A stretch of 64,000 nt of DNA from Verrucomicrobiia bacterium (GTDB lineage Bacteria > Verrucomicrobiota > Verrucomicrobiia > Verrucomicrobiales > DEV007): contig JAUIAH010000004.1 of NCBI GenBank assembly GCA_030425385.1, positions 1 through 64,000 of the forward strand, in the 5' to 3' direction. Each line of letters opens with the position of its first letter. Position 1 is the stretch's first letter. The notes beneath the pieces were generated by a model. The model was not told the DNA's origin and searched no databases. It saw only the letters and a program-made list of their open reading frames with translations. Positions 22,001 to 48,844 of the stretch are shown piece by piece. Made by a program: the position numbers and the translations under genes.

Positions 22001-23209
22001 GGAACTCAGAAAGGCGGTTCCGACCGCGACGGGCAGCCACAGGTGATGCCCGCGAGCGTTCTCGGTGACCTGGATGACCATTTCCTCCCATTCATCCGCC
22101 ATGGGAAGGCCACGCCAACTCCACGTGTGCGCAATGATGAGTCGCGCCAAGGAGGACTGCTGCTCGGCCCGGGCGAGGTCGTAGGAACCCACCTCAGTGA
22201 CACCTTTGAGCGTGCGATGAATTTCGTCTAACAAAAGTGCGGAATGCCCCTTGCGTTTGCCCGGCTCCAGAGACATGAGGTGCTCGTTCAGCGTGGGATC
22301 GTCGAGCATGGCGAGACTGACTGTCAGAAGCGCGTCCAGGGCCGTGTGGACCTTGCGACTCCCGCGCAGAGCCAAACCTTGAGTGAGAGCCTCGATGCTT
22401 TCCTCGCGCTTTCCTTGAAAGCAAGCGATGACTCCCGCGAGGCACCAGCCCTCACATCGGCGCGTCTTAGGCTTACACGCTTTCAATTCGGACGCCACGA
22501 CGCTGGCCCGAGCGAGATCTCCTTGCAGCAGGAGCGCCTCGCCCAAGGCCACGCGATGCTTAATCTCAACGTTCTCGAGATAGCGCACCCACTCGGGCAT
22601 GTAGGCAAGGTGCCAACTCAGAACCTCTCGGACTTTGGGGAGCAGTTTCGTTTGAATGGACTCGGGTAGGATCCGAAAGCGCTCACAGCTGAAAGGATAG
22701 GCGACGAAGGAGAGGTCATCAGAACTGATCCGGACAGAGTGAAATATTCCCGATTCAGGCGTGAGCGCCTCAGTGAGAGTCTTCTGATTCTTGTCCCAAT
22801 AAGCAGCGTGGGCTTTCCGCACCATTCTGCGAGCATTAATGTCATAGCTAGTGAAACCGATCTCTTCGATCGCACTCAGCCAGCTGAGATTGCTACCTTC
22901 CTCACTGGCGATTTCACTGATGCCTCCATAGAAATCGCTGGACACTTCCAAAGGATGGCCACTAGCAAAAGTGCCGAAACCGGCTCTGGCGATCTTGTGA
23001 AATAGGGTCTTCACATCTTCGCCAATGAACTTCCCGTGTCCAGATTGGTTCAACCGGTCCTTGAAGGCACTCATGCTGATAGGCTTGAGGATGGCCGCGA
23101 GCATGCAGGCCATCTTCCGCTCCGTGAGTGTGAGATCCTGATAGAACGTGCGAATAGCCCGCGCGATCGCAGGGGGTAGGACACTTGTTGTTGGAGAGTC
23201 AGGATTCAT
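19073..23209 (-). CDS. SNF2-family DEAD/DEAH-like helicase (SWI2/SNF2 ATPase)
   Basis: A 1378-aa protein. The C-terminal 460 residues are a complete SNF2 motor: motif I DDMGLGKTIQALALLL (about 945), motif II in TIVLDEAQAIKNADT (about 1040), VITTGTPIENHLGELHALF, and the HelC half with LVFSQFVDHLSLLREHLDEA and SDRAHRIGQQRPVTVYRL. Residues 1-900 are low in known domains and contain repeat-like helices (about 210-330). Bacterial SNF2 proteins remodel protein-DNA complexes; this long form is common in Verrucomicrobia. It converges with the DUF1501 gene and overlaps queA by 4 bases (ATGA), so it is co-transcribed after queA. Target unknown. Confidence 0.9.
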   Translation of the reverse strand: MNPDSPTTSVLPPAIARAIRTFYQDLTLTERKMACMLAAILKPISMSAFKDRLNQSGHGKFIGEDVKTLFHKIARAGFGTFASGHPLEVSSDFYGGISEIASEEGSNLSWLSAIEEIGFTSYDINARRMVRKAHAAYWDKNQKTLTEALTPESGIFHSVRISSDDLSFVAYPFSCERFRILPESIQTKLLPKVREVLSWHLAYMPEWVRYLENVEIKHRVALGEALLLQGDLARASVVASELKACKPKTRRCEGWCLAGVIACFQGKREESIEALTQGLALRGSRKVHTALDALLTVSLAMLDDPTLNEHLMSLEPGKRKGHSALLLDEIHRTLKGVTEVGSYDLARAEQQSSLARLIIAHTWSWRGLPMADEWEEMVIQVTENARGHHLWLPVAVGTAFLSSADTDIDSGKFPDVVPWTSERKPLAPWERNLIALEQFASKAGHRPPSVTSSKPTKERLIWTLEVSTYGEQIVEVVPHLQKSKGRAWTAGRRVALKRLVRESPPWITEADTPVIACIEQGGWPHEHYFLDPNRALYQLCGHPLVFRSGNVTQPIEVMQHALKFILREGADGAVAAELQPARDFRIHHSSGYESWWETPNRLAVMKVSDEEIQVVRLLGLSNGEQTIPAEGKERLVAALESLKGKLQVFTDVDAVGDGESKVIALEPQLTPQVHLSPLVDGLKVALLVQPLQDCDFFFAPGIGSHTVFGEVEGEARKTERALSEEVARASEFLRECPTLSNQEQEQLYEWRLPDPETCLELLSEIQPLRDRVEICWPQGERFKLAAEVTAQRLKFKVTSRKDWFELTGELRIDEDQVIQLQALLEMLANEESLGRFVKLADGQFIALTREFRTRLRDLEAFTTEGKGGARRLNPLAAHAVTELVEESEATLSKKWVDHLERLRGAETHKAKVPSTLKAELRPYQREGFEWLTRQAHWGVGACLADDMGLGKTIQALALLLDRAPSGPALVVAPTSVTRNWLEEAHRFAPTLNVTLFGPGDREASLQGLEPFDLVLCTYGLLPLEIDRLEKVSWSTIVLDEAQAIKNADTQRWKAATKLQADFKVITTGTPIENHLGELHALFQFINPGLLGSRQRFHVKFTDPIAKERDEGARTRLKRLIRPFILRRLKHEVLDDLPSRTDIILRVEPTEKEQAFYEALRRQVVKRLEEGSDDESAGEQSLRILAEIMKLRRACCDPKLVDPKLTLESSKRRLFAETLDELLANGHKALVFSQFVDHLSLLREHLDEAGISYQYLDGQTPAKKRHERVRAFQAGEGDVFLISLRAGGTGLNLTAADYVIHMDPWWNPAVEDQASDRAHRIGQQRPVTVYRLVMAQTIEEKIVDLHHEKRDLADSLLSGAETVGKLSPDQLLALLRDDR

Positions 23210-28777: not shown

Positions 28778-29986
28778 CTATCGGTTCATGGAAGAAGGTC
28801 TCGCGATGATGACGACGCCCAACACTCCTGCCAGACCTTCAAGCCCTCTCTGGAGCTCTCCATGCTGCTCCGTTCGAGCTCCGTCATCCCAGATCACGGG
28901 GACAATGGTATTGTATGGAGATTCGTCTCTAAGGTAGAGAGAATGATCGGCGGCAATCTCTTCGATGAGTTTTGAAGTCCTTGCTCCGGGGTACCAGAAT
29001 TTCACCTCGATAACTGTTCGCAGACCAGGAAGACAGAGGTCGGCTCTCGGCTGGAGCTGACCAGTACGAGGCAGGTAAGTCTCCTCTTCGAGGTCGGGGA
29101 ACACTGGCTTCAGCACAGCCCAAAGAAAGCTTTGGAAGTGATACTCGTTCTGTAAGTCCCAGATTTGAGGTGAAGCCCATTCATGTTTGTTCCGAGTCTT
29201 GGATTCCCACGGCCATCTGAGAAACGAATCAGTCGCCCGGTTCAAACATGTAAGCAGCTGTTCCTTGGTCGGTGCTATGAGATCGACAGTAGCTAGCCGC
29301 TGACGCAAATATGATAATGCCGCGAGCCTAACCAAGCTCCTATTCAAATCATTCGCGCAGTCCTCGGTCAAAAGCACCAACGCCCAGACGCCCGAGATGT
29401 TAATCAGATCAGCGCCGACCAGCCCGCGCGAAAAAACTGCCGCTTCAACATCCGCAGCTCCGTCACAACACCGCCACGGTTCATCGTGGAGAAGCGATGC
29501 GATTAATCCGGCGACACTAGCATAAGTGTCGCCAGATTGTCCAATCTCGGCCACAGCAACGACTACACCTTTTAGCCATTCTACGAACGGTTCTCTCTCG
29601 TTCGATTCAAGCGAGACGAAACCAACGGCGATCCCCAGAAGACTAGCCCAGTCTACGAGCAGTCCTGATGGGATCCCCTCTACCACGTAGTTCGATCTGC
29701 CTCGGAGCCAATCAAGCCCTGCTATGAAGTCAGAGCGTTCATTCGCTTCCCCCTCGCCGTATCCCAGCCAAAACCCCATAGCTGCGATGTCTTGGTGCCT
29801 CCGGGACGCTCCGCTTGCAGCAAAGGACGCTTTCCGTCCTGTTCTGACACAGGTCTCTGGGAAAACAGCCAATCCAAGCCACTTGGAAAAAGCGATCGTC
29901 AGGACGCAAGGCTTTGTCTCGCGCCCCAACTGTCGAAGATGCCAGCGACGGGCGTCTTCAGCGAACATCTGGCTGTCACCATTCAT
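28778..29986 (-). CDS. PD-(D/E)XK nuclease coupled to Argonaute (bAgaN-like effector)
   Basis: A 402-aa protein. I start it at the ATG 29986, whose ATGA overlaps the Argonaute stop, because this gives translational coupling; the frame is open further upstream, inside the Argonaute gene. A PD-(D/E)XK nuclease core is visible near the C-terminus: PRADLCLPGL with Asp316, then TVIEVKFW with Glu327 and Lys329, followed by a helix that would support the active site. The N-terminal 300 residues are unrecognised. Catalytically dead long-B Argonautes are known to be paired with effectors, including nucleases of this fold (bAgaN), that degrade DNA after guide-directed detection and cause abortive infection. 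This pair fits that scheme. Assignment to that exact family is inference. Confidence 0.8.
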   Translation of the reverse strand: MNGDSQMFAEDARRWHLRQLGRETKPCVLTIAFSKWLGLAVFPETCVRTGRKASFAASGASRRHQDIAAMGFWLGYGEGEANERSDFIAGLDWLRGRSNYVVEGIPSGLLVDWASLLGIAVGFVSLESNEREPFVEWLKGVVVAVAEIGQSGDTYASVAGLIASLLHDEPWRCCDGAADVEAAVFSRGLVGADLINISGVWALVLLTEDCANDLNRSLVRLAALSYLRQRLATVDLIAPTKEQLLTCLNRATDSFLRWPWESKTRNKHEWASPQIWDLQNEYHFQSFLWAVLKPVFPDLEEETYLPRTGQLQPRADLCLPGLRTVIEVKFWYPGARTSKLIEEIAADHSLYLRDESPYNTIVPVIWDDGARTEQHGELQRGLEGLAGVLGVVIIARPSSMNR

Positions 29987-32298
29987 AGAAACCAACGGAG
30001 ACGATTCATCTTTCCAACGAGAGCGTCGGGGTTCCACTTTGGCAATGTCTCTAACCTTCCTAACAATCGAGCAATCAGTTGGGAGTAAAGAATTGTCACC
30101 GGCATCGATGCCCCAGAAAAGCCCCGCCAAGAGTGACAGCTGAAAGCATAAACCTGACGGGTAAGATAGTGGAGGTCTCGGAACGCCGATCCTCGGTGCA
30201 GTCTCAGAATCAGGGGAGACGGTAGGCCGTCTGTCGCTCGCTTCACTTCCTTGGGCCCCGTCAGCACCAGGAGCGACTCTGACGCGTTCAAGGTGAGATA
30301 CTGACCCCGACTTGGAGCGTAGACACCCTTTTTAGCCTTTGCCTCCCAGTCGAATGCCCCATCCTGACCTTGGTCGAATACTGTGAGTGGTTGGTCGTGT
30401 GCCACGTGGATGAAGGCAATCTCAACTTGAAAGTCTGTCAGGTGTTGAGCAACGGCAAGAGCCGCGTCCGCTGTCTCCCGGTCTCTTAAAGGTTTGAATG
30501 AATGAAAGACTAAACGAACCTCTTCATTCTTCTGCCAGTTTAGCCTAGTGCGGGCTTCGTCAACGCTCGCGATGAGCATGTCCATCAAGGCTTGACCGTA
30601 GTCCTCGAAAGCAACTGCCCTCGACAAGTTTCCAAGCAAGTACTGCCCTTCATTGGTGAACATGGTCGTTATGCCAACGACGCGTTGCGCCTCGCCCAGT
30701 CGAGAATCTCGGATCGTCGCGCTTCCGATCCCAATCACAAGCTCGTGGGCGTAAGGCTTTGTCACCTGTAGAACCCATGGAACACCTCCAATTTTGGCGT
30801 AGCTGGCGAGAGCCATGTCGCTCAGCGCAAACTGCCGGTTGGTTTCGTTATACCGCATGGTTCCTGTTTCAAACACCTGCACCGGAGTTTGCTGGGACAA
30901 GAACGCCGCTTTGCAGACCAGATAGGGATTCTCCTCCCCTCTGAAGTCATGGCTCGACTCGTCCAATTGAACGATGGCCAGATCCCATTGCCCTGCCTCA
31001 AGCGCTTTCATCGCTGCACGATGGTATGCCTTTGCCGACCGGTTCTCCGTCGGGAAACATCTCCATTCCGGGGACTTAAGGCGATAGAGTTCAGTGAAAC
31101 CTTTTGGGAAGTAGTTCTTATCCGAAGTCGAATCGGCACCGTTGAAGAACTGTTGAAGGAATTGCTCAACCTCGCCGCGACGTTGACTTTCACAAAGCAC
31201 GCAGATCCGCGGCTTCATCGGTGTTTGAGTTGCTTGGTTGAACGGCCCGTGGTTTCGCAGCCCCGAATTTGCATACTTTTCGGCGCGCTTGTTGCCTGCG
31301 GGGTCAAAGACATACAGTGTCGGTGGGCAGTTCTCGACAGCAGGGAAAATCGAGGAAGTCGATTCGCCTAACATCTCACCGACCTCAAAGGAGACGCCAG
31401 GTAGAACCTCTAATGGCTTTGAGCGGATCGCCTCGAACGTCTGTTCTACCCGAGCGAACTTGTCCTTCCCTCCAGCAAGTGTGCTTTGCCTCAGCTCTAC
31501 TCGCTGGCGTACTGACTCGCCCACCGACCCGAAAACCGTCTCCAAGACACAGCGCCATGCATCGAATTTCGCTTCTAGCTCGACCTCCCGAGCAGGCATG
31601 CGTTCACAGCCATCCCGGCAATCGGTCAGGATCAGGTCATCCCCATCGACATCTACGACACGCCCACACAGCCGGAGCTTTGGCTCAAACCTTGGATCAT
31701 CACCACGAAATTCCTTGGAGACATAGAATCCCCGTAAATCGAAGCCCTCGTCTAACCACTCAGCACAGTTCTTGGCGATTCTCCGACGGATGCGAGGGTT
31801 TGCAACAATGCCCACAAACGGATCAACGCGGTCGAAATTGAACACCCGGATGTCGATCTCAAGCAAAACCCGCGCCGATAGCCAATCAGGCACTTCTTGG
31901 TCGGTTGCATCACGGACGAGATCTGAAGCTTCGACGATTAGAACTTGCAACGGTTTGAAGCCGAGGAGTTGCCGGGACTTGGCCTTCCCAAACTTTGCCG
32001 TGAAGTCCTCCCGCACCAGTGCTGCGGCCATAGAGAGGTAGCTCTTTAGGTTTACAGATCCAGCCTCTCCTCCCAAGGATGGGGAGTCATCGACCAATCG
32101 CACGGCATGTATGATATCTTTCGAAGCTCTGTCAGCCTGCTCCTCTCTTCCACGCTTGAATAAATACTGCCCGCAGTAGTCACGGCGAAGAGATCGGAGA
32201 GATTCGTGGTCGAACGCTAAGACCTCGGTTTTGATGTCCACATCCGGCACTTTCACCGGCGCTACATTCATCCACAGCTGGCTCTGACTCCCGTTCAT
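29983..32298 (-). CDS. Long-B prokaryotic Argonaute, catalytically inactive
   Basis: A 771-aa Argonaute. Residues 1-360 would hold the N, L1, (short) PAZ and L2 regions. The MID domain is about 362-500, with the guide 5'-phosphate pocket suggested by Tyr459, Lys463, Gln470 and Gln474 (NPYLVCKAAFLSQQTPVQVF). The PIWI domain is 510-771, ending with DLHYLTRQVYAFSCHSWRGF and PVTILYSQLIARLLGRL. The DEDX tetrad is broken: the first Asp is replaced in VIGIGSATI (523-527) and the third lies in FHSFKPLRDRE (599-608) with no Asp after His-Ser. Such dead enzymes of the long-B group bind guide RNA and target DNA and signal to a partner. The partner nuclease begins inside this gene's stop codon. An acyl-carrier-like gene ends 32 bases upstream. 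Confidence 0.92.
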   Translation of the reverse strand: MNGSQSQLWMNVAPVKVPDVDIKTEVLAFDHESLRSLRRDYCGQYLFKRGREEQADRASKDIIHAVRLVDDSPSLGGEAGSVNLKSYLSMAAALVREDFTAKFGKAKSRQLLGFKPLQVLIVEASDLVRDATDQEVPDWLSARVLLEIDIRVFNFDRVDPFVGIVANPRIRRRIAKNCAEWLDEGFDLRGFYVSKEFRGDDPRFEPKLRLCGRVVDVDGDDLILTDCRDGCERMPAREVELEAKFDAWRCVLETVFGSVGESVRQRVELRQSTLAGGKDKFARVEQTFEAIRSKPLEVLPGVSFEVGEMLGESTSSIFPAVENCPPTLYVFDPAGNKRAEKYANSGLRNHGPFNQATQTPMKPRICVLCESQRRGEVEQFLQQFFNGADSTSDKNYFPKGFTELYRLKSPEWRCFPTENRSAKAYHRAAMKALEAGQWDLAIVQLDESSHDFRGEENPYLVCKAAFLSQQTPVQVFETGTMRYNETNRQFALSDMALASYAKIGGVPWVLQVTKPYAHELVIGIGSATIRDSRLGEAQRVVGITTMFTNEGQYLLGNLSRAVAFEDYGQALMDMLIASVDEARTRLNWQKNEEVRLVFHSFKPLRDRETADAALAVAQHLTDFQVEIAFIHVAHDQPLTVFDQGQDGAFDWEAKAKKGVYAPSRGQYLTLNASESLLVLTGPKEVKRATDGLPSPLILRLHRGSAFRDLHYLTRQVYAFSCHSWRGFSGASMPVTILYSQLIARLLGRLETLPKWNPDALVGKMNRLRWFL

Positions 32299-32711: not shown

Positions 32712-34778
32712 TTAGTCGGCTTCTGAATCTAATCGCAGGTAGGTGATCTCACAGGAGCGGGTCATCCGCTCCTCCTGGCTCATCGCGCCAAAAGAAAGGG
32801 CCTTCATGTCGTAAGGTTGAAAGAAGTCGAGACCGCGATCGAGCGTGACCTTCCAGCCGGTATCGGTTGTGATGCTTCGCGCATGGAAGCTAGGATCTGA
32901 ATCATATTCGAATGTAAAATTCACTTTTGAGCCCTGCATGGTATCGACCACTTGATTTAGGTTCTTGTCTTGTTTCTCCGGTTGTTTGGGGTCGGACTGC
33001 GTGATGAGATGCACCTCGACCTCCTCGCCATCTGGAATTCCAGAATGGATGACGTGAAGCAGCTCGAGAACATTACGCACTTGCCAGAATTGTCGAACGT
33101 AGGGATCGCGAATCGTGATCTTGGCTGCACCCTTTAGATGAGCAGCAAATAGGCGTTGATAAGAGTATCCTTTCGAATTCTCAGGGACGACCACATGTTC
33201 GCCAGCCTGGAGTTCGTCGTTTGTTTCCGTATCATCTGGGGGCGGCGCAGCGACTAGATCGACTTCGGGTTCTTCACGGTTTGAATCTTCTGCCTCTGGA
33301 CGTTTAGGAAAAGCGGCCAAACTTGGGTATTGGGCTTCCTCGGGAGTCAGTACGGTTTGGCGCTTTCCATTCTCTCTTTCACGGTAAACGAATGACTTGG
33401 GCTCGAACGTTTCATCGATACGCAAAATGTGGTCTTTAACACGCTTACGGCATTCCATGGCGAAACTCACAAGCTCGGCCATTTCCTCCTTGGTGCACTC
33501 TCCCGAAGGATGAATCAACTTCATGAGGCCTGCGAATGTCTTCATGACCCCATCGCGATCTCGTGTTGTGATGTCTGAATCGATTTGGAATTGGGTTTCG
33601 AACATGTGCCCAAAATCCTTTGCTCGAAGACTGCGAAGGATCTCGGCGAGGTAGTCGACAATCAAACCGTAGCCGTTGGTGAACAGGTCATTGCGGATAG
33701 GGCTGACTTCCCAACCAGGCGCAAAGGCGTGAATTCGGTCGAGAAAAGCAGAATCAATGTACTTGTCAGGGAGCTGCTCGAAGAAGTGGGAGTGCTTCAG
33801 CATGTAAGGCACGGACTTCTTTGTGTTTCCCATGAAGACCATTGACGCTTCTGCTCCCATCGCCTCAATCCCGCGGGAAAACGATTTATTTGCCATGTAG
33901 TTCTTCATGATGTCGACAAGGTTCTTGTCGACGCGCTTGTCTTTCCCTGCGAATTCATCGAAGCAAATACAATCCCAGTAGCCAACCAGACCGATCTTAC
34001 CCGAGGCATTGTTGACAAACAGCTTGGCCATCGTGATCTCGCCACCTGAAATCAATATACCGTGAGGCGAAAACTCGGAATATATGTGCGATTTACCCGT
34101 GCCCTTGGGCCCAAGCTCCATGAGATTGTAATTCCGTTCACAGAAGGCAACGAGGCGAATCAGTTGAAGGAGCATTCCTCGTCTGGAAAGCATTTCGGGA
34201 TTGAAGCCGATCGTCTGCATCAGAAGCCCCATCCATTCCTCGGTGGAGAATGCCGCCCGGGCTTTGAGGAACTCATCGAAATCAAAGCGCGAGACTTGTA
34301 TCGGTTTGAGAGTGTCGATGTGCCAAGGAGAATCGTCTGGATTCTCCGAAGCTTGATACACCATGTCCACGATGCACCATACCCCTCCCACAAGAAGCTT
34401 CGGGTGTTTCTTGATGTAATCAGATGAAACAGGAACTTTCTTGAGACCCAAATTCGTAAAGGTAGCCTCGTAAACACCAGCTTTGTCGTTAAGGTCGACT
34501 GCGAGCTTATCGATGACCTTGTGTCGGCCTCGCTCCTTGATATTCGAACGTATGAGCCCCGCTTGGCTGCGCTGGACAAAGTGCTTCGCGAGGATGTCGC
34601 GCACCCGATTGACGCCTTCCTCGACCAGATCCGGATCATCTGTTGCACAGTGTTGGCCTAGCAGAAACTCTAGGACATAGCTTGGAACGATCGCGTTCCC
34701 TTTTAAAGACTTTGTGAGATCCTTGCGGACAGCGAGACCGGCAAAGTGTTGATTGATCTTGGTGTCGAGGTCACTCAT
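32712..34778 (-). CDS. brxL: BREX BrxL AAA+ protein with MIT_C-like C-terminus in place of Lon
   Basis: A 688-aa protein. The N-terminal 520 residues match BrxL: DLDTKINQHFAGLAVRKDLT, the GNAIVPSYVLEFLLG segment, and an AAA+ core with Walker A GPKGTGKS (223-230), CICFDEFAGKD and GNTKKSVPYMLKHSHFFEQL. In the usual BrxL a Lon-like (S16) domain follows. Here, after an acidic Pro-rich linker, residues from about 545 read GYSYQRLFAAHLKGAAKITI, RDPYVRQFWQVRNVLELLHV and ITTDTGWKVTLDRGLDFFQP. This closely follows the MIT_C (phospholipase D-like) domain of eukaryotic MITD1, and no Ser-Lys Lon motif is seen. It begins 12 bases after pglZ. BrxL contributes to blocking phage DNA in type 1 BREX. Confidence 0.9.
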   Translation of the reverse strand: MSDLDTKINQHFAGLAVRKDLTKSLKGNAIVPSYVLEFLLGQHCATDDPDLVEEGVNRVRDILAKHFVQRSQAGLIRSNIKERGRHKVIDKLAVDLNDKAGVYEATFTNLGLKKVPVSSDYIKKHPKLLVGGVWCIVDMVYQASENPDDSPWHIDTLKPIQVSRFDFDEFLKARAAFSTEEWMGLLMQTIGFNPEMLSRRGMLLQLIRLVAFCERNYNLMELGPKGTGKSHIYSEFSPHGILISGGEITMAKLFVNNASGKIGLVGYWDCICFDEFAGKDKRVDKNLVDIMKNYMANKSFSRGIEAMGAEASMVFMGNTKKSVPYMLKHSHFFEQLPDKYIDSAFLDRIHAFAPGWEVSPIRNDLFTNGYGLIVDYLAEILRSLRAKDFGHMFETQFQIDSDITTRDRDGVMKTFAGLMKLIHPSGECTKEEMAELVSFAMECRKRVKDHILRIDETFEPKSFVYRERENGKRQTVLTPEEAQYPSLAAFPKRPEAEDSNREEPEVDLVAAPPPDDTETNDELQAGEHVVVPENSKGYSYQRLFAAHLKGAAKITIRDPYVRQFWQVRNVLELLHVIHSGIPDGEEVEVHLITQSDPKQPEKQDKNLNQVVDTMQGSKVNFTFEYDSDPSFHARSITTDTGWKVTLDRGLDFFQPYDMKALSFGAMSQEERMTRSCEITYLRLDSEAD

Positions 34779-34790
34779 ATCGTGAGGGCA

Positions 34791-37322
34791 TTAGAATTCA
34801 TCAAAATCGCTACCAAAATGGCGCACTAAGCGTGCGGACGACTCCGTGTGGGTGCGCAAGTGGCTTGTTCCAGGTATGGTCTCTTCAAGACGAAGCACCA
34901 CATCCTTGTTATTGTAGCCCTCTGCTTCGTGACCCAGTGTTAGGGTGACTTGCGTTTCCCGCTGACGAGGATCCTGATCCTTGGATAGGAAGTTGATCGT
35001 CTGTTGATCGGACAGAAGCTTGCCATCCTGACCGTAGAGCCCGAGGCGAAGTTCAATTGGCTGGATGCGTTCCACGTCGGACACCGGTTCTGTCTGATAA
35101 AGACGCACTGGTACCCGGGTCGTGGTGATTCGATGAGGAATGTGGAGAAACTCAACAGCGACTCTCCGCAGAGTTCTGTTCTTCCGATCCTTTAGCACAT
35201 TCACTTTCAAGACGGGAACGACCACTTCTTGTGGCATCGCACCTCCGTGAACAAAGCGTTTGCCTGCTCCCTGAATCGGGAGGCGTTGGATGCCCTTGAC
35301 GATTCCGATCTGCGAGTTGCCAGCAAGGCCGAGAGCACTTGCTTCATAAACCCGAATGGTCGAGTTAGATTGCAGGCCAGTCCCCATCACCCAACGCCGA
35401 CTCTTTGCTGTTATCTTTCCTTGGTTAGGGAGGGGAGGGCAGTCGGCATCATCGACATCGCTTTGCTGGAAAAGGAAGCCGTGATCTGCCGCGATCACCA
35501 TGTTAGTGCCATTGATGTTTGCGATCTTGCGGGCGATCTCCATGACCTCATCCAACGCCCTGGCGCAGGCTTCCGGCAGGTCGCCTTCCGTCATCTTGTC
35601 GTCACCGACTTTATCAATGACATTGTGCAGGATGTAGAAAAGCTCATGGTCGCGTGTGAGTGGCTGCCCTTCGGTCTTGTTCTTCAATTCCAGGAATTTG
35701 GAAGCCTGCATCACCTTCACGTTGACGTCTGTTCGAGCTGCAAGCAGCTTTTCTCGCACCCCAGTTCCTGAAGTTGCTTCACCGTCGGAAATAACGGTGT
35801 CGCCGTTGTCCGCGATCTCTAGAGTTTGGTGAGGGAAGAGGGCGGCCATTCCCAGCTTGGTGAAACCCGGTAAAATCCCCAGAGTCGCCTCAAGCTCCGC
35901 ACTGTAACGATCCTCTTTGAGGAAACGATGAAGCAATTCATGGGCGCATTCATAGCGCAAGGCATCTGAGACAATCACGAAAAGCTTTTGCCCTTTGTCA
36001 ATGAACGGAGTCACCGCGTCACTAAAGAAATCTCGCTGAGACGGAAGCCCTTGTGGAGGCCAGTTGGATTGCTGCCCGACGACGTCTTCCCAGCGGGTGG
36101 CAAGGTGGATCTGATAGTCGTTGAGGTAGCGCGCTTCGACGCGCTTAGCTGTCTCTTTGAGAAACTCTCCTTGACCAGACTTACGGCAATGCTGCTGAAA
36201 CTTCCGATAATGGTAGTCAATCCGCCACCAACGCTTGGCGTAGGCATCGAGCCCGGCGGAAATCGAGGCCATCTGCAAGTCGAGCGATTCCATTCGATCC
36301 ATGAATTCGCCCGCATGATAGAGCGCCTGATACATATCAGAGTAGTCCTCGTACCAAGTCGATCGGGAACGCCTTTCGATAATAGCTCGCCTTTCTTCAG
36401 GTTTGAGCGTCTGTTCGAGGATGCCCTTGCGAAGGTGCGACAGGATCGCCTTCTCCACATCCTCGTAAGCATCGACATCGGTCTCAATCAGTGACCGGAA
36501 ATCACTTTGCGCCACGAGAGCTTCCCGAATTCGTAGATCACTGGCGATCCGTGTCGAAAGCTCGCGGAATTTGCTCTTGAAAGCCTTACTGTCCTTCCAT
36601 CTGCTCAAGAAGACGATCGCTTGCCCGCTAAGCGATGACGAAGGTTCTGTTCCGATGGGGGCATTTCGGCGGAACACCTCGATCATGAAATCGAGCAACG
36701 TAGGCGATGCTTTGCTGTAGGAGAACTGGATCCCAATCTCCCTCCAGAAGGCACTTTCCAACCCGCAATCGTTGAACAAGAGAGCGACAGGGTCAAGGTA
36801 GTCGTCTTCCTTCAGTTCCTTCGCCAAATGTAAGATCACTGAATCGAGTGAGTCATCCTGCGAGCGAAGCAACACCGCCATCATCCGGCGGCGGATCGTG
36901 GCCTGCGAGTCATCTGCCTGCAGGCGCTTCTTGAGCGCCTCACGATTCTTCTTCGTCTGGAAAAACCGGGCATGTTCCCTCGTGAGATCCTTGAACTCCG
37001 GCGGGAGGCCGACATCGTCCAGATGCAGGGAAGCCCGGTCTGCATGAAACTCCGCATTAGACAGGAGAATATCGAGAAGCCAGTTCTCGTCGTCGTTGGG
37101 ACGGGCGGACGGAAAATAGAGTAGGAAATTCTGGTTTGGTTCGTCGCGGAGGACTCGGAATTTCACCGCTAGTTCGTCATTCTTAACTGTGACGGCTTCC
37201 ACGTCAGGAAGTGAAAGAGTCTGCAATTCATCGCCCCATTCTCCATTGGCATCGTACCAAAAGACCACCCGGTGGCGAGCGAAGTGATTGGTTAGGCTTT
37301 TCTGGATGACGGCGTGAGACAT
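34791..37322 (-). CDS. pglZ: BREX PglZ, alkaline-phosphatase superfamily protein
   Basis: An 843-aa type A PglZ, the hallmark protein of BREX. The N-terminus SLTNHFARHRVVFWYDANGE is typical. The phosphatase-fold core appears at LFVIVSDALRYECAHELLHR (first metal-site Asp) and at MVIAADHGFLFQQSDVDDAD (Asp-His). TLGILPGFTKLGMAALFPHQ lies between. I start at ATG 37322 (MSHAVIQK), 2 bases past the upstream gene stop, in preference to 37370, which lies inside that gene. The family's substrate in BREX is not settled. Its operon position just before brxL is canonical, but it is separated from pglX by four genes not normally found there. Confidence 0.95.
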   Translation of the reverse strand: MSHAVIQKSLTNHFARHRVVFWYDANGEWGDELQTLSLPDVEAVTVKNDELAVKFRVLRDEPNQNFLLYFPSARPNDDENWLLDILLSNAEFHADRASLHLDDVGLPPEFKDLTREHARFFQTKKNREALKKRLQADDSQATIRRRMMAVLLRSQDDSLDSVILHLAKELKEDDYLDPVALLFNDCGLESAFWREIGIQFSYSKASPTLLDFMIEVFRRNAPIGTEPSSSLSGQAIVFLSRWKDSKAFKSKFRELSTRIASDLRIREALVAQSDFRSLIETDVDAYEDVEKAILSHLRKGILEQTLKPEERRAIIERRSRSTWYEDYSDMYQALYHAGEFMDRMESLDLQMASISAGLDAYAKRWWRIDYHYRKFQQHCRKSGQGEFLKETAKRVEARYLNDYQIHLATRWEDVVGQQSNWPPQGLPSQRDFFSDAVTPFIDKGQKLFVIVSDALRYECAHELLHRFLKEDRYSAELEATLGILPGFTKLGMAALFPHQTLEIADNGDTVISDGEATSGTGVREKLLAARTDVNVKVMQASKFLELKNKTEGQPLTRDHELFYILHNVIDKVGDDKMTEGDLPEACARALDEVMEIARKIANINGTNMVIAADHGFLFQQSDVDDADCPPLPNQGKITAKSRRWVMGTGLQSNSTIRVYEASALGLAGNSQIGIVKGIQRLPIQGAGKRFVHGGAMPQEVVVPVLKVNVLKDRKNRTLRRVAVEFLHIPHRITTTRVPVRLYQTEPVSDVERIQPIELRLGLYGQDGKLLSDQQTINFLSKDQDPRQRETQVTLTLGHEAEGYNNKDVVLRLEETIPGTSHLRTHTESSARLVRHFGSDFDEF

Positions 37323-37324
37323 GG

Positions 37325-38107
37325 CTAGTTCGCGAGTTCCTCCCGATAGGTAAGGTAATCGTAATCCCACCGCTGCATGAGTTTGAAGTCTGCCAGGGTT
37401 AGCTCTGTTTCTGAGACAGCCTCACATTGCACCACTTCAATTCCACTAGCTTCCATGATGGATCGAATCCTCTTCGCTACTGTATCCGCTTGATTCAATG
37501 CCTCTTCGTCATTATAGGCACTTTCATCCATCATCAGATTCAGTACGACCTGATAGTGCTCTCCTTGGTTTAGCTCACGGAAAGGCTGCACGCTCAGAAG
37601 AACGTCAGAAAAGAGATGTTGTTTCTTCTTCAGGGCCCCTTTGATCTTTGCAGATGCCTTGCGCAACTGATCATTGAAGCCATCAGGAAAAGCGGTGCGT
37701 GTGTATCGTTTGCCTAGCCAATTCAAAACGACACGCAACTGCGGCTCGGCAACAATAGGCGCATCGTTGATGTCGTGCTCTGCTAGGAAGGTTCGATCAA
37801 CAGAGATCTGTTCCCAGGCACTCGCAGAGATAGCGATCTCGCCGGTTGCGGCGAAATCTATCTGACGAGGGTGGAGTCCATTGGCATGCGCCGGACGGAT
37901 GGCGTCGACTCTGCGTGTCACCAAGAAAACCGCGAGCGGCTCGTTCTCCAGCGAGTGGTGAACGAGGTCGCAACTCTGGGACACGACGAGGAGATGACAG
38001 GTATCGTCCCGCGCCAAATCCGGGAATTGATCAGAGAATCGAGCAGCCGGGAACAAACATCCCTGCTTCCAACCGTTCTCCCTGATCTTGATTCCAATAT
38101 CTTCCAC
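37325..38107 (-). CDS. Unknown 260-aa protein with a VSQSCDLVH motif
   Basis: I do not recognise a named family. The N-terminus has GWKQGCLFPAARFSD, and then CHLLVVSQSCDLVHHSLENE. A similar sequence (Q-x-CD-I/L followed by hydrophobics) recurs in hypothetical proteins of phage-defence loci, where Cys, Asp and His might bind metal. The middle has the acidic and aromatic strand PIVAEPQLRVVLNWLGKRYT, and the C-terminus is helical (ALNQADTVAKRIRSIMEASG). It lies 2 bases from pglZ and 9 bases from the HTH gene, so it is certainly co-transcribed with both. It may be the effector or sensor partner of the HTH protein; this is inference. Confidence 0.75.
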   Translation of the reverse strand: MEDIGIKIRENGWKQGCLFPAARFSDQFPDLARDDTCHLLVVSQSCDLVHHSLENEPLAVFLVTRRVDAIRPAHANGLHPRQIDFAATGEIAISASAWEQISVDRTFLAEHDINDAPIVAEPQLRVVLNWLGKRYTRTAFPDGFNDQLRKASAKIKGALKKKQHLFSDVLLSVQPFRELNQGEHYQVVLNLMMDESAYNDEEALNQADTVAKRIRSIMEASGIEVVQCEAVSETELTLADFKLMQRWDYDYLTYREELAN

Positions 38108-39715: not shown

Positions 39716-42700
39716 TCACTCGCGTAACCGGCTGAGTTCGTTCAAGATCGGCTTGAGAGCCCGTTCTGGATTGTCGAACCAGTCAGTTGACCAGATTCGG
39801 TGGATCTCCCAGCCCATGCTCTCCAGGATCTCCTGACGCAGGCGGTCGCGGTCACGCACCGACTTGCCTGAGTGGTAGGATGCCCCATCGCACTCGATTC
39901 CGATCGCATAGAGATCGTTCTTCGCCGGATGCTTAACGGCGAGATCGATGAAGAACCCGGCGACGCCTACCTGGCAGTCGGTTTCGAAACCATGCCTGCG
40001 AAGCGCCTCCGCGACCGCGATCTCGAAATCACTGTCTGGCGGACGACCAGAGGGCCCTTCGAGCGCGAGCTTGTTCGTCGCCGCGTAGTGGAGCATTCCC
40101 TTCAGCGCCTTCACCCCGTCAGAACTTGAAGACCCTACCACTATGTCATCAGTCGACATGGACGAGAAGATTTCCATTCGGCTCCGGGAACGGGTAAACA
40201 AAACGTTCAATCGTCGCCAGCCATCACTACGATTGATCGGCCCAAACCGCTGATGAACCTTCGTCGTTCCTGACGCTTTGCCATAAGTGCAGGAAATGAT
40301 CATGATGTCGCGCTCATCTCCTTGCACGTTCTCCAGGTTCTTGATGAACATCGGTTCGGGACTACTCAAGTTAGCCTCCAAAGCGCGGCCAAAAGCAGTC
40401 GACTCCTTGCCAAGGTTCTCTATCAGCCCATCGATCAGATCACGTTGCTTGGCGTTCATGGTCGCCACACCGATCGAGACCGTCGGATCTTTCGAGAGCA
40501 GTTCGCAGACGCGGTCGGCCACGGCCCTTGCCTCGATCATATTGACCTGGTTCTCGAAGACACCCTCGTCCAGGTAGTTGAAACGGATGCCCAGGGCCTC
40601 ACTACCGAAGTGCGGCGATGGAAACAGCATGAGACGGTTGTCGTAGAACTGTAGGTTAGAGAAGGCGATCAGGCTTTCATGGCGAGAACGATAGTGCCAG
40701 CGAAGTTGGCGCGTTTGAAAGACCGGTGCCACAGCGTCGAGAATGCTTTCGGCGGCAGCGACCTCGATCTGCTCTTCATCGTCTTCATCGCCTGACGTGA
40801 GACGATCAAAGAACGAGGATGGCGCCAGCTGCTTGGAGTCACCGACCACGATCATCTGTGAGCAGCGAGCGACTGCACCCAGAGCATCGGATGGGCGCAT
40901 CTGTGAGGCCTCATCGATCACTAGCAGATCAAAGCGAATCGCGCCCGGCGCCAGATATTGCGCGACTGATCTAGGGCCCATCATGAAGCAGGGCTTCAGC
41001 GCTTGCGTCGCTGCGCCTGCCCTGATGAGCAACTGTCTCAGCGGAACATGCCGCTTCTGCTTGGCCATCTCACGCTTGAGCAATTCCAGACCAGTGTATT
41101 CAGAAACCCGCGCTCCACGATACCCTGGATCGATAGGGCGATCCGCAATGGCAGACGCGGCTCGCTTGCGCATTCCCTTGAGCAAGCGCTTGTCAGACTT
41201 GCGGAAATCACGCTGCGTTTCCGACTGAATCATGCCGCTGAATCGCCTCAGCTCTGTGACCTCGCTGAGCATTTCATCAGCCAGCGATGCATGAACCGCG
41301 TGCTCCAGAATTGGAGTGGGATCTTCGATGTCGAGCCCTGCTTCTTCAAGCCTCTGACAAAGGGCCCTTGCGCCTTGAGCATCCAGCCTGCCCCGAAGCC
41401 TCAGGAACGACAGATAATCTGCCAGCAGCTTCTCGCCTGCCTCTGCTTCCGCGATGCGGCTCTCGAGCTGTTGAGGGGATCGGTCTCGTGACCACTCTTC
41501 ACCCTGACAGGATACCAAGGTGTCAAACGCTTCAAAACGGCTCCTTTCGCCTTCAAAGAGAGGCGTCGATTGTTTCGCCCAAGTTCCAAGCTCATTAATG
41601 AAGCTTGCGTTCTTTGCAGCGAGTATCTCGTCGACCAACTCCCTCGGGGTACCTTCCGCCTCCATCCAGCGACACCAGTCGCGAGTACGACGCACCTTTG
41701 TTTCCACGTCTTCAGCTGGCAGCGGTTGATCAGGAAGGTTGCCGGAAAATAGACGCTGGTTTAGACCACTGTAAGCAACCTGGATCTCCGACCAGCGATT
41801 ACGAATGTCCTGGTAAGCGTCGAGCGCCGACGCAGCGTCGTCCAAGGACGTGTTTTCAGTGAGTTGAGTGGCCGCTAGAGGCTGCTCTAACTGCTTGAGA
41901 TCTTCCTGAAGCTTCTTAAGGAACTTCGGCCATTGCTCATCGTCGTCGCCATCCAATATTGCCTTCTCGGGGAGCGCCTGGTTCTTGCAATGGGTTGCCA
42001 CGATTTGCAGAGCGTTCTCTAGCTTGGGGATGTCGTCCGCGAGACCGACATCCCAAAATCGTCTCAGGCCTTCTAACAGTTTCCGGTCGGCGGCAATCAA
42101 CCACCTTCCCATGTCTGAAAGTTGAGGCTCATCAAACAGCCCGCCGCCCGAATCCGTGTAGGCTTCTTCCACGGTCGCGTGCCATTGGACGACTGCCGTC
42201 ACGCGTTCGAGATCGGTGTCCACTCCCTGGTAGAGACCTTTCAAGAGCCCCTTCCAGTCTTCCTCTGCTAGGAACGCCTCTTCGGCAGCTTGATAATTAG
42301 CCAAGGCGTCGAGCTGCGCTAGCACTTCTGCGTCTTCAAGAGAGGCCTCGGGGTGCAGAATCGTGCGAAGAGATTTCTTAGCGCGTCTGTAGGAACCTTT
42401 CAGCAAGCGCTTGATGGTCGAGGACTCGTCGAGATTCTGTCTCAGGGTGATGAGAGCATCGCCGCGTGGCACCTTATCCCAGACAAACACTTGTCTCAAT
42501 GCTGCCCGATCCGATTGCAATTGCTGCAGCATCTCCTCAAACCAGGCATAGGCATCGCCCAGGTTTCTTGGGAGAAGGGTCTCGTTACGAAGATCCAAGT
42601 CGCCCGCTTGCAGGAGCGGATCCGAAATACTGATGATCGAGAGCATCTCGTTGAGAGTGGCCAAAGACAAACTACCGGAACGGAAGTGCGATGGCACACG

Positions 42701-44878
42701 TTCACTCGCATAGGCTTCGAACTCCGTTAGGTAGCCGCTCCATTTCTGGGACACGGTTAGGATTGTGTCCGCGCGCTGGGCTAATTCGGGAAAGACCTTG
42801 AGCGGAGTGGCCGGAGAGAGGCGAGATCGCAAGAGGCAGTGAATCCCATCGTGCGCTTCCGAAAGACTCTCGCAGTGTTCAAGTTCTTGCAGTGAGAGGC
42901 TTCCTAGTTTCTCCATGCTTTGGTGCGCTGCCTTTGCCTGGTCTAGCAGAGCATCGACTTCCTTCAGCCCTCCGTTATGCAGTTCATTGATGACTTCCCA
43001 ATCAACACCCTCTGCAGGCGGTGCTGCCATCACTGCTTCGAGGTCATGCTTCATCTCCCGCATGGATTGCTCAGCTTGGAACAACGAAGCGGGAGAGGCT
43101 TTCACTTGTGCGATCACCGCTTCCAGTGCCTGCTTCCATGCAGCCAGAGCTTCCAAGATGCGGGATTGATCATTGCGATCCAGATCCGGACTCTGGATGC
43201 CGCGCCACGGATGCGCGACTGCAATGGGTTGCTGCCCAATCTCCTTGGACATCTCCAGCATGTGCTTGCTCAGCGCTCGCAAATCCCGCTCGACCATCGC
43301 GTGGTGGCTTGGTGTCCAGGTTTCGCCCGACAGACCCTCAATCCGCAAGTCATGCCAGCCACTTGGGATCTCGTTTCGAAACCTCACACAGCGCACAAGG
43401 ATCTCGTGAATGGTCTTCCCGGTTTGTCTCCACAGCTTACTAACAAGTTCCGAGTGCTCCTTCAGTTGTTGAAGCAAGTTTGCGTGATGCTCGACCTCGG
43501 AGTCCAGCGACGGCGGATCGTAGAACGCTGATTCATAGCGTTTCTTGAGACTCTCGATGACGCTTACCTTCTTGGTGTTGTGGCTGTGGAGTTCGAGGCA
43601 GAAATCGCCCAGCCCCAGCTTCTCCATCCGATGCTGCACCACTTCCAGCGCTGCGAGCTTCTCTGAAACGAAGAGCACCGTGTTGCCGCGCTGGAGAGCG
43701 GCGGCGATGAGGTTGGTGATCGTTTGGGATTTGCCCGTTCCCGGAGGGCCTTGAATCACCACGTTGCGGCCATCGAGCGCATCAATGAGAGCGGAATGTT
43801 GTGAGCTGTCTGCCACGTCCACGAGTGGGTAATCCTCGTGGATGTTCGTCATCTCATCGATGGCGTGTTCTTCGAGAAAGCTCGCGGCTGCGGCTGCGCC
43901 AGAGTCACCTCCGGTGCCGGATTCCTGTCGATCCTGCTCCTCCTGCGCCGCGCTGATCACGGTATTCACCAAAGGGTGCTCGATCAGCGGCTCTTCTTCT
44001 GGCCAACTGTTAGGATCGAGGTCGCGATACATCAGCAACCTGGAAAAGTTGAGGAGTGCAATCGTGCCCCAACGTTTCACTTTCCAGCGGCTGTAGCGAT
44101 CGACCAATTTCGATTCGATCTTGGCGAGATACTCATCCGGCCAATCTTCCTCTCCTTCCGAGCCCAAAAAGTCTGGCAGGACAAAGCCAAAGTCTTCTTC
44201 CAGTCGTGCAGCGATTGAAGCGTTGAATTGCACCTCCTCCTCACGCAAGGATAGGGTGTATTGATAGGTATTGGTACGCGGATCCAGACTGCCTTTGCTC
44301 AGGGCCACGGGAATCGTGTAGAGCGGGGCGTAGTGGGCCTTGTCGCTGTCCGGACTTTCATACCATTCCAGGAATCCGACCACCATGTGGAGGAAGTTCA
44401 TGCCCGTTTCCTCGACCGAGGCTCTGGCGAGCTTGTAGAGGTTGGCGAGTCGTGTCTCCAGAACGGATGGGTAGTAGGGAGTCGAGAGACTCTCGGCGGG
44501 TTCGGTCACCGTGTCGGTATCTGCGGGCAGATCCGGGGAGATTGTCAGTCTCAGGTGCCGGGCCCAGGCGTCCACCGGTGGGAGCTTGGGCTTTACCTCA
44601 CCACCATTTGCTTTCCATTGCTCCAGTTCGTCCTCGGTCGGTTCTGGGATGGGGGTGAATGACAGGCTCCCGGAGTTGTAGAGCGTTTCCGTGATGGCGT
44701 TCGGATACTCATTCACGATCCTCACATAACGCGACGATCGCCCATGCTTGAACGATACCAGCGGGTTGTGGGCGGAAAGATCGAGCAAACGCTTGCGCAT
44801 CTGCGCGAGTGCTTCCGTGACGGTTTCCTGTTGGCCGTTCGTGGTCAATTCTCCAATGCTTTCTTCTCCTTCCATCAT
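39716..44878 (-). CDS. DUF4011-type superfamily 1 helicase with C-terminal Vsr-like nuclease
   Basis: A 1720-aa protein. The DUF4011-type start (ALAQMRKRLLDLSAHNPLVSF, about 24-44) precedes the superfamily 1 (COG1112-like) helicase. Walker A is GPPGTGKS (377-384), then NTVLFVSEKLAALEVVQHRM. Walker B lies in LLVIDEASQMRPSDALGAV with GDSKQLAPSSFF, and the C-terminal helicase half is at about 1340-1590. The last 105 residues form a Vsr/MTES_1575-like endonuclease (DLYAIGIECDGASYHSGKSV, preceded by FFIDLAV). Such helicase-nuclease proteins are common in defence islands, sometimes as stand-alone systems. It lies 17 bases after pglX, inside the BREX gene order, which is unusual. Whether it acts within BREX or alone cannot be told. 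Confidence 0.9.
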   Translation of the reverse strand: MMEGEESIGELTTNGQQETVTEALAQMRKRLLDLSAHNPLVSFKHGRSSRYVRIVNEYPNAITETLYNSGSLSFTPIPEPTEDELEQWKANGGEVKPKLPPVDAWARHLRLTISPDLPADTDTVTEPAESLSTPYYPSVLETRLANLYKLARASVEETGMNFLHMVVGFLEWYESPDSDKAHYAPLYTIPVALSKGSLDPRTNTYQYTLSLREEEVQFNASIAARLEEDFGFVLPDFLGSEGEEDWPDEYLAKIESKLVDRYSRWKVKRWGTIALLNFSRLLMYRDLDPNSWPEEEPLIEHPLVNTVISAAQEEQDRQESGTGGDSGAAAAASFLEEHAIDEMTNIHEDYPLVDVADSSQHSALIDALDGRNVVIQGPPGTGKSQTITNLIAAALQRGNTVLFVSEKLAALEVVQHRMEKLGLGDFCLELHSHNTKKVSVIESLKKRYESAFYDPPSLDSEVEHHANLLQQLKEHSELVSKLWRQTGKTIHEILVRCVRFRNEIPSGWHDLRIEGLSGETWTPSHHAMVERDLRALSKHMLEMSKEIGQQPIAVAHPWRGIQSPDLDRNDQSRILEALAAWKQALEAVIAQVKASPASLFQAEQSMREMKHDLEAVMAAPPAEGVDWEVINELHNGGLKEVDALLDQAKAAHQSMEKLGSLSLQELEHCESLSEAHDGIHCLLRSRLSPATPLKVFPELAQRADTILTVSQKWSGYLTEFEAYASERVPSHFRSGSLSLATLNEMLSIISISDPLLQAGDLDLRNETLLPRNLGDAYAWFEEMLQQLQSDRAALRQVFVWDKVPRGDALITLRQNLDESSTIKRLLKGSYRRAKKSLRTILHPEASLEDAEVLAQLDALANYQAAEEAFLAEEDWKGLLKGLYQGVDTDLERVTAVVQWHATVEEAYTDSGGGLFDEPQLSDMGRWLIAADRKLLEGLRRFWDVGLADDIPKLENALQIVATHCKNQALPEKAILDGDDDEQWPKFLKKLQEDLKQLEQPLAATQLTENTSLDDAASALDAYQDIRNRWSEIQVAYSGLNQRLFSGNLPDQPLPAEDVETKVRRTRDWCRWMEAEGTPRELVDEILAAKNASFINELGTWAKQSTPLFEGERSRFEAFDTLVSCQGEEWSRDRSPQQLESRIAEAEAGEKLLADYLSFLRLRGRLDAQGARALCQRLEEAGLDIEDPTPILEHAVHASLADEMLSEVTELRRFSGMIQSETQRDFRKSDKRLLKGMRKRAASAIADRPIDPGYRGARVSEYTGLELLKREMAKQKRHVPLRQLLIRAGAATQALKPCFMMGPRSVAQYLAPGAIRFDLLVIDEASQMRPSDALGAVARCSQMIVVGDSKQLAPSSFFDRLTSGDEDDEEQIEVAAAESILDAVAPVFQTRQLRWHYRSRHESLIAFSNLQFYDNRLMLFPSPHFGSEALGIRFNYLDEGVFENQVNMIEARAVADRVCELLSKDPTVSIGVATMNAKQRDLIDGLIENLGKESTAFGRALEANLSSPEPMFIKNLENVQGDERDIMIISCTYGKASGTTKVHQRFGPINRSDGWRRLNVLFTRSRSRMEIFSSMSTDDIVVGSSSSDGVKALKGMLHYAATNKLALEGPSGRPPDSDFEIAVAEALRRHGFETDCQVGVAGFFIDLAVKHPAKNDLYAIGIECDGASYHSGKSVRDRDRLRQEILESMGWEIHRIWSTDWFDNPERALKPILNELSRLRE

Positions 44879-48484: not shown

Positions 48485-48844
48485 TTAGTTCTTGAGGCTG
48501 TTTTGGAGGCCGTGGAGGAGGCGTTTTACTTCGAGGAGGAGTGCTAGGATCGGCTTCATCGGTTCGTCAGTGATGTAGCCGAGTCGTTGGGCGAGGAGCA
48601 TTTGGGTTTCGACTTCGGCACGGGAGCCTTGCGAGATGGACAAGAACTTCTGGAACTCTGCCGTCGAGAAACGGGCCTGACCTTCTGCAATGTTCGAGGG
48701 TACGGAAACGGCGGCTCGTCGCACCTGACTTGTGAGGCCGTAAAGCTCCTCCTTGGGAAAGCCTCGGGTCGCCGCATAGACAGCCTCCGCCATGTCCATG
48801 GACTTCTGCCAGGCAATGAGGTCTTTGAAGTTCTGAGGTTTCAT
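48485..48844 (-). CDS. Four-helix-bundle protein (S23/23S rRNA intervening-sequence type)
   Basis: A 119-aa protein of the S23/IVP family: FKDLIAWQKSMDMAEAVYAA, then YGLTSQVRRAAVSVPSNIAE and GQARFSTAEFQKFLSISQGS, and a final helix LLLEVKRLLHGLQNSLK. The family occurs as inserts in 23S rRNA genes and as free-standing copies, and it also resembles the Avd subunit of diversity-generating retroelements. Here the gene is not in an rRNA and no reverse transcriptase is nearby. It is bounded on both sides by purine-rich GAGTG repeats and splits brxC from pglX, two genes normally adjacent. It looks like an insertion of a small mobile cassette, without polar disruption of the operon. Confidence 0.9.
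   Translation of the reverse strand: MKPQNFKDLIAWQKSMDMAEAVYAATRGFPKEELYGLTSQVRRAAVSVPSNIAEGQARFSTAEFQKFLSISQGSRAEVETQMLLAQRLGYITDEPMKPILALLLEVKRLLHGLQNSLKN

What the first reader, a model, noticed from the sequence alone, without database searches (positions are those of the whole stretch)
32712..34778. BrxL ends in an MIT_C-like domain in place of Lon
The C-terminal 140 residues follow the pattern of the phospholipase-D-like MIT_C domain of human MITD1 (GYSY..LF, DPYIR-like, GW.I..GRGLD.F), while Lon protease motifs are absent. This ties a BREX AAA+ protein to a domain otherwise known from ESCRT-linked membrane work and would change how BrxL is thought to act.
Basis: partly seen in the sequence, partly recalled or inferred. 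Interest (0 to 1): 0.7.

Follow-up and report, generated by a model that had tools for sequence, protein, structure and literature searches.

The report
BREX BrxL carrying a MITD1-like domain
A bacterial anti-phage (BREX) motor protein ends in a phospholipase-D-fold domain of the kind found in human MITD1 rather than a Lon-like domain; this is a common, already published BREX variant, probably a DNA-cutting or DNA-gripping module, but its close kinship to the human cell-division protein does not appear in the papers I could search.

Summary
The minus-strand ORF 32712-34778 encodes a 688-aa BrxL (BrxL_N, AAA+ ATPase) whose residues 537-681 are Pfam MIT_C (E 1.7e-34). No Lon domain is detected, and the predicted fold (pLDDT 94) matches MITD1 (Z 22.5, rmsd 1.8 Å), then PLD-fold restriction enzymes (SauUSI, NgoAVII, Nuc, BfiI).

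The architecture is not new. PADLOC has a full-length profile, and Rakesh & Krishnan 2026 report 1030 of 2913 Type-1 BREX taxa with LonP replaced by an 'HKD-endoDNase' bearing HRD. I infer that domain is MIT_C.

The membrane reading is not the best one. The domain keeps an invariant HxR(x4)[D/N] plus DPY.R...Q..N and RGLD; a profile alignment puts H/R/D on H/K/D of PLD enzymes. MIT_C BrxL fit one ancient clade that co-segregates with PglZ and PglX lineages. Most likely it is a PLD-type phosphodiesterase or DNA-gripping module carried by BrxL; catalysis is untested.

Apparently new: a BrxL subfamily (HDRE[IV]R) is 48-50% identical to human MITD1 (E 5e-39), and MITD1 retains the same residues except the variable D (N, also seen in BrxL). 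MIT_C also occurs fused to a bacterial dynamin and to IF2_N.

The parts
32712..34778 (-). brxL, 688 aa, MIT_C type
   Evidence: ORF; Pfam/NCBIfam/PADLOC BrxL
34356..34751 (-). BrxL_N domain, residues 10-141
   Evidence: PF20442 E 2.1e-45
33393..34325 (-). BrxL AAA+ ATPase, residues 152-462; Walker A GPKGTGKS 223-230 and Walker B DE 274-275 intact
   Evidence: PF13337 E 1.7e-123; invariant in 41 relatives
33183..33392 (-). poorly conserved linker, residues 463-532, with 491-521 predicted disordered
   Evidence: mean top-residue frequency 0.39 against 0.76 for the ATPase and 0.64 for MIT_C; pLDDT under 50 at 491-521
32736..33170 (-). MIT_C / PLD-fold domain, residues 537-681
   Evidence: PF16565; AF2 pLDDT 94.3; MITD1 Z 22.5
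33093..33107 (-). DPYVR motif, residues 558-562 (D, Y and R near-invariant)
32862..32885 (-). HARSITTD, HxR(x4)D motif, residues 632-639, counterpart of the PLD HxK(x4)D
   Evidence: H 128/129, R 129/129, D/N/S 111/16/2; aligned with HKD by hhalign
32826..32837 (-). RGLD motif, residues 648-651
   Evidence: partly seeded by the search pattern
34791..37370 (-). pglZ (BREX-1 type A), directly upstream of brxL
   Evidence: TIGR02687 686 bits
44896..48435 (-). pglX (BREX-1 adenine methyltransferase)
   Evidence: NF033452 1257 bits
48959..52660 (-). brxC
   Evidence: NF033441 1051 bits
52455..53063 (-). brxB
   Evidence: PF08747
53060..53701 (-). brxA
   Evidence: PF08849

Best explanation
This is the BrxL of a complete Type-1 BREX operon. 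SHOWN (sequence and predicted structure): an intact BrxL AAA+ DNA motor whose C-terminal Lon-like domain is replaced by a PLD-superfamily domain (Pfam MIT_C) with an invariant HxR(x4)[D/N] motif and a matching DPY.R...Q..N half. INFERRED: in the solved Acinetobacter BrxL the C-terminal domains pair across the equator of two rings that thread duplex DNA. A PLD domain there would keep the ring-pairing role, and because single-motif PLD enzymes build one active site from two subunits (established knowledge of Nuc and BfiI), it would place composite phosphodiesterase sites inside the DNA-holding chamber. The most likely job is therefore nicking or cutting, or at least gripping, the phosphodiester backbone of unmodified DNA after ATP-driven loading, as a second effector beside PglZ. 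The membrane role of the homologous MITD1 domain would then be a eukaryotic redeployment of the same fold.
For: MIT_C E 1.7e-34. AF2 model pLDDT 94.3. Structural matches: MITD1 Z 22.5, then SauUSI 10.5, NgoAVII R 9.3, Nuc 8.7, BfiI 7.9. H632 128/129, R634 129/129, Y560 and Q566 129/129, N569 128/129 across 129 domains from many phyla. An unconstrained hhalign of MIT_C against PLDc_2 proteins spans the domain and puts H632/R634/D639 on H/K/D. A second architecture joins MIT_C to IF2_N. PglZ lies upstream in 69 of 80 relatives; 10 of the other 11 lack upstream sequence. C-terminal type co-segregates with PglZ (4 changes, 20 expected) and PglX (3 changes, 14.7 expected), no shuffle of 500 as low. 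The BrxL CTD pairs rings tail to tail (PMC10164562). Independent published inference of an HKD-endoDNase with HRD at this place (PMC12839542).
Against: No activity has been shown for any BrxL-MIT_C. K to R at the phosphate-binding position may abolish catalysis. The hhalign score is marginal (21.8, P 0.0098; best of 30 shuffled profiles 21.7), so register support rests on the fold and on motif spacing. In the solved Lon-type BrxL the CTDs lie far from DNA. Type-1 BREX is reported not to cut phage DNA (PMC10164562). The only characterised MIT_C protein, MITD1, is reported as membrane-binding. I had no coordinates, so pocket geometry and the dimer were not tested.
Confidence: 0.6

Rival explanations
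1. The MIT_C domain has lost catalysis and is a structural or phosphate-binding module: it pairs BrxL rings and grips DNA or a BREX partner, as the dead Lon-like domain does in other BrxL.
For: The Lon-like CTD it replaces is itself inactive and mediates ring pairing. R instead of K in every member and D to N or S in 14%. Co-inheritance with PglZ and PglX lineages fits a partner-binding role.
Against: H and R are more conserved than a dead pocket would need: H 128/129, R 129/129.
Confidence: 0.27
2. One reading: the domain binds membrane and ties BrxL to the cell envelope, for example at the site of phage DNA entry.
For: Homology to MITD1, whose PLD fold binds membranes. A bacterial dynamin-like GTPase also carries MIT_C.
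Against: Almost all bacterial members found sit on a DNA motor in a BREX operon. The conserved residues correspond to a phosphodiesterase-type motif.
Confidence: 0.1
3. The domain is a degenerate Lon domain and the MIT_C resemblance is chance.
For: Public annotation names such proteins Lon protease-like BrxL.
Against: MIT_C E 1.7e-34, MITD1 Z 22.5, no Lon_C match while seven Lon-type BrxL match Lon_C.
Confidence: 0.01

Closest known systems
BrxL with C-terminal HKD-endoDNase (Rakesh & Krishnan 2026, PMC12839542; PADLOC PDLC02508)
   Same: Type-1 BREX, LonP replaced by a PLD-fold domain with HRD (K to R), PglZ in the operon; PADLOC profile matched over residues 1-683 of this protein
   Different: That paper does not name MIT_C or MITD1 (0 occurrences). 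I infer identity from fold, place and motif; its sequence lists were not readable here.
Human MITD1 MIT_C domain (PDB 4a5z, 2ymb)
   Same: Same fold (Z 22.5) and the same conserved residues DPYIR, Q, HxR, GW, RGLD; 48-50% identical to the HDRE BrxL subfamily
   Different: Carries an N-terminal MIT domain, binds ESCRT-III and membranes; N in place of the D of HxR(x4)D; 25% identity to the window's domain
Acinetobacter BrxL (PDB 8emc, 8emh)
   Same: BrxL N-terminal and AAA+ domains (phmmer 4e-143 over residues 3-470)
   Different: Its C-terminal domain is Lon/RadA-like and lacks protease residues
PLD-fold restriction nucleases SauUSI, NgoAVII R protein, BfiI, and Nuc
   Same: PLD fold; HxK(x4)D counterpart of HxR(x4)D
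   Different: 9-13% identity; Lys rather than Arg; no BrxL motor

Membership tests
BrxL (BREX) | BrxL_N and BrxL AAA+ ATPase domains with Walker motifs | tested here: met
   Walker residues invariant
BrxL (BREX) | encoded in a BREX operon next to PglZ, with BrxA/B/C and PglX | tested here: met
Lon-type BrxL (TIGR02653 full length) | C-terminal Lon-like (Lon_C) domain | tested here: not met
   TIGR02653 only over residues 3-482, 566 bits under the 628 cut-off; no Lon_C match
Pfam MIT_C | score above the family cut-off over the full profile | tested here: met
   119 bits against 25, profile 1-141 of 142
MITD1 (ESCRT-linked) | N-terminal MIT domain | tested here: not met
   no MIT domain in the Pfam scan
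PLD superfamily | PLD fold | tested here: met
PLD superfamily | HxK(x4)D catalytic motif | tested here: inconclusive
   HxR(x4)D present; H and mostly D kept, K is R in all 129
PLD-type nuclease | nuclease activity | not testable with these tools
   needs biochemistry

The most novel reading that the evidence does not exclude
The PLD domain of human MITD1 and that of a BREX BrxL subfamily share a comparatively recent common ancestor, so a eukaryotic ESCRT factor took over (or gave) an anti-phage module, and both still carry a working HxR phosphodiesterase site that acts on DNA or lipids.
Probability: 0.2. Interest if true: 0.8.

Novelty: new member of a known kind. Interest (0 to 1): 0.5.

Why it matters
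It shows that about half of the long-form BrxL sampled here are not Lon-like at all, although databases call them Lon protease-like. It identifies the published 'HKD' BrxL domain, by inference, with MIT_C, so the crystal structures of MITD1 become templates for it. It also makes a concrete question testable: whether BrxL-MIT_C and human MITD1 share a phosphodiesterase activity, which I found no report of for either.

Tried and rejected
Weak PF16565 hits near 20-25 bits in the phylum scan: the two I opened (L010, L014) are MalK-like ABC transporter ATPases, and the rest (L011-L013, L015, L016) look alike; I treat them as chance. A first hhalign with shallow Nuc-only profiles aligned only the N-terminal half. 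The full-length AF2 model has a poor AAA+ core, pLDDT around 40, so no ring geometry was inferred from it. Two origins of MIT_C on BrxL: parsimony gives 2 changes, but a single clade is not rejected, AU p 0.505, so I do not claim two swaps. MIT_C was not found in INPHARED phages. The Menshen paper and the MITD1 structure paper are not in the library. A paper search for MITD1 with BREX gave one unrelated cancer review. No Lon row appeared in the fold searches; that is told as absence only.

Full report
OBSERVATION. The ORF at 32712-34778 is on the minus strand, 688 aa. Pfam finds BrxL_N 10-141, BrxL_ATPase 152-462 and MIT_C 537-681 at E 1.7e-34. NCBIfam TIGR02653, whose profile includes the Lon-like part, matches only residues 3-482 and falls under its cut-off. 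phmmer against PDB hits BrxL structures over 3-470 and MITD1 over 528-656.

SETTING. The operon is a complete Type-1 BREX: BrxA, BrxB, BrxC, PglX, PglZ type A, BrxL, all on the minus strand. The genome belongs, by inference, to Verrucomicrobiota: locus L008 from a same-phylum genome lies on a contig of the same length (137745) as a contig titled Verrucomicrobia bacterium.

FOLD. AlphaFold2 of residues 525-688 on 56 sequences gives pLDDT 94.3, pTM 0.89. Foldseek: MITD1 E 1e-14, TM 0.83, then Zucchini, PLD1/2, SauUSI. VIA-align: MITD1 Z 22.5, rmsd 1.8 Å over 152; SauUSI restriction endonuclease 10.5; NgoAVII R protein 9.3; Nuc 8.7; BfiI 7.9. Z under about 8 is weak by the tool's own note. In a library of viral proteins the best matches are also PLD-fold proteins.

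CONSERVATION. Over 129 domains, including the IF2_N and dynamin fusions and human MITD1: Y560 and Q566 129/129, N569 128/129, H632 128/129 (one Q, L206), R634 129/129, D639 D 111, N 16, S 2; W642 128, R648 128, G649 L650 D651 129. The genome and viral sets were drawn with patterns on RGLD or DPYIR, so conservation of those letters is partly by selection; H632 and R634 were not in the patterns. An unconstrained hhalign against 28 PLDc_2 segments from related genomes aligns the domain in register and puts H632, R634 and D639 on H, K and D of the HKD motif, DPY on the PY of PLDc_2; score 21.8, P 0.0098, but the best of 30 column-shuffled controls reached 21.7.

DISTRIBUTION. Of 62 BrxL from samples of Pseudomonadota, Verrucomicrobiota and Bacteroidota, 27 are MIT_C, 26 have another long C-terminus and 9 are short (my count). 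Seven of the 26 were checked and all match TIGR02653 full length and Lon_C. On the BrxL core tree the label needs 2 changes against 20.1 in shuffles; a single MIT_C clade is not rejected, p 0.505. On the PglZ tree 4 changes against 20, on the PglX tree 3 against 14.7, no shuffle as low. So the C-terminal type travels with PglZ and PglX lineages. Clustering by near relatives contributes to this.

LITERATURE. Rakesh & Krishnan 2026 (PMC12839542) report 1030 of 2913 Type-1 taxa in which BrxL's LonP is replaced by an HKD-endoDNase with an HRD motif, citing an earlier report. The text does not mention MIT_C or MITD1. I infer it is this domain. The BrxL structure paper (PMC10164562) shows Lon-like CTDs pairing two rings tail to tail, away from DNA, with a hinge linker. 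MITD1's PLD fold binds membranes and this is needed for abscission (PMC6015221; PMC9776629 lists PI(4,5)P2).

MITD1 KINSHIP. A second BrxL-MIT_C subfamily with motif HDRE[IV]R (L194, L195, L217, a plasmid of Thioflavicoccus, 18 IMG/VR loci, and a more distant pair of Hymenobacter plasmids) is closer to human MITD1 than to the window: L194 against MITD1 E 4.7e-39 over 148 residues, 48% identity, 50% for L275; MITD1 groups with it at 99/89 support, as sister to the bacterial set. The window's domain is only 25% identical to MITD1 and 25-31% to this subfamily. Only one eukaryotic sequence was used and the direction of transfer is not resolved.

OTHER ARCHITECTURES. IF2_N + MIT_C in Paenarthrobacter and Dynamin_N + MIT_C in Candidatus Thiodictyon. 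The second keeps the membrane idea alive.

MECHANISM. The best-supported account is a PLD-type phosphodiesterase or DNA-gripping module on the BrxL motor (see Best explanation for what is shown and inferred). Catalysis is untested; R for K is the main doubt.

VERDICT. A real, correctly read feature; the architecture is known and common, the membrane interpretation is not the best one, and the added value is the identification of the domain with MIT_C and the close MITD1 relationship.

Noticed in passing
L250:5640-8483: Plasmid pTs485 of Candidatus Thiodictyon syntrophicum encodes a 947-aa dynamin-like GTPase ending in MIT_C with HDRYVVCD; a membrane-remodelling type GTPase joined to the MITD1-type domain in a bacterium.
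   Followed up: partly
L099:4413-5462: Paenarthrobacter plasmid protein joining IF2_N to MIT_C, without BrxL.
   Followed up: partly
L206 (BrxL, position 632 of the window numbering): Natural H to Q change in the otherwise invariant HxR motif, in a BrxL beside PglZ; could be a natural inactive form or a sequencing error.
   Followed up: no
L278:2294-4231: Frame that joins a PglZ-like part to a BrxL tail with MIT_C on a 4.6-kb viral contig; may be a fusion or an assembly error.
   Followed up: no
L287-L290: Four IMG/VR loci with 360-aa frames holding only the end of the BrxL ATPase plus MIT_C; split or frameshifted BrxL, or a separate short protein.
   Followed up: no
window 28778-32298 (-): Class II prokaryotic Argonaute with an overlapping DpnII/MboI-type helical REase partner directly downstream of brxL.
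   Followed up: no
window 39716-44878 (-): Hhe-like anti-phage protein (DUF4011, SF1 helicase, MTES_1575 nuclease, 1720 aa) lies inside the BREX operon between pglX and the pglZ cassette.
   Followed up: no
window 48485-48844 (-): Four-helix 23S rRNA-intervening-sequence type protein between brxC and pglX.
   Followed up: no
window 53760-57176 (-): MkoA/MkoC-like helicase (1138 aa) with RNase_H_2 and weak Cas4-like parts, next to brxA.
   Followed up: no
window 19073-23209 (-): SNF2 helicase similar to DpdE and ZorD at the other side of the island.
   Followed up: no
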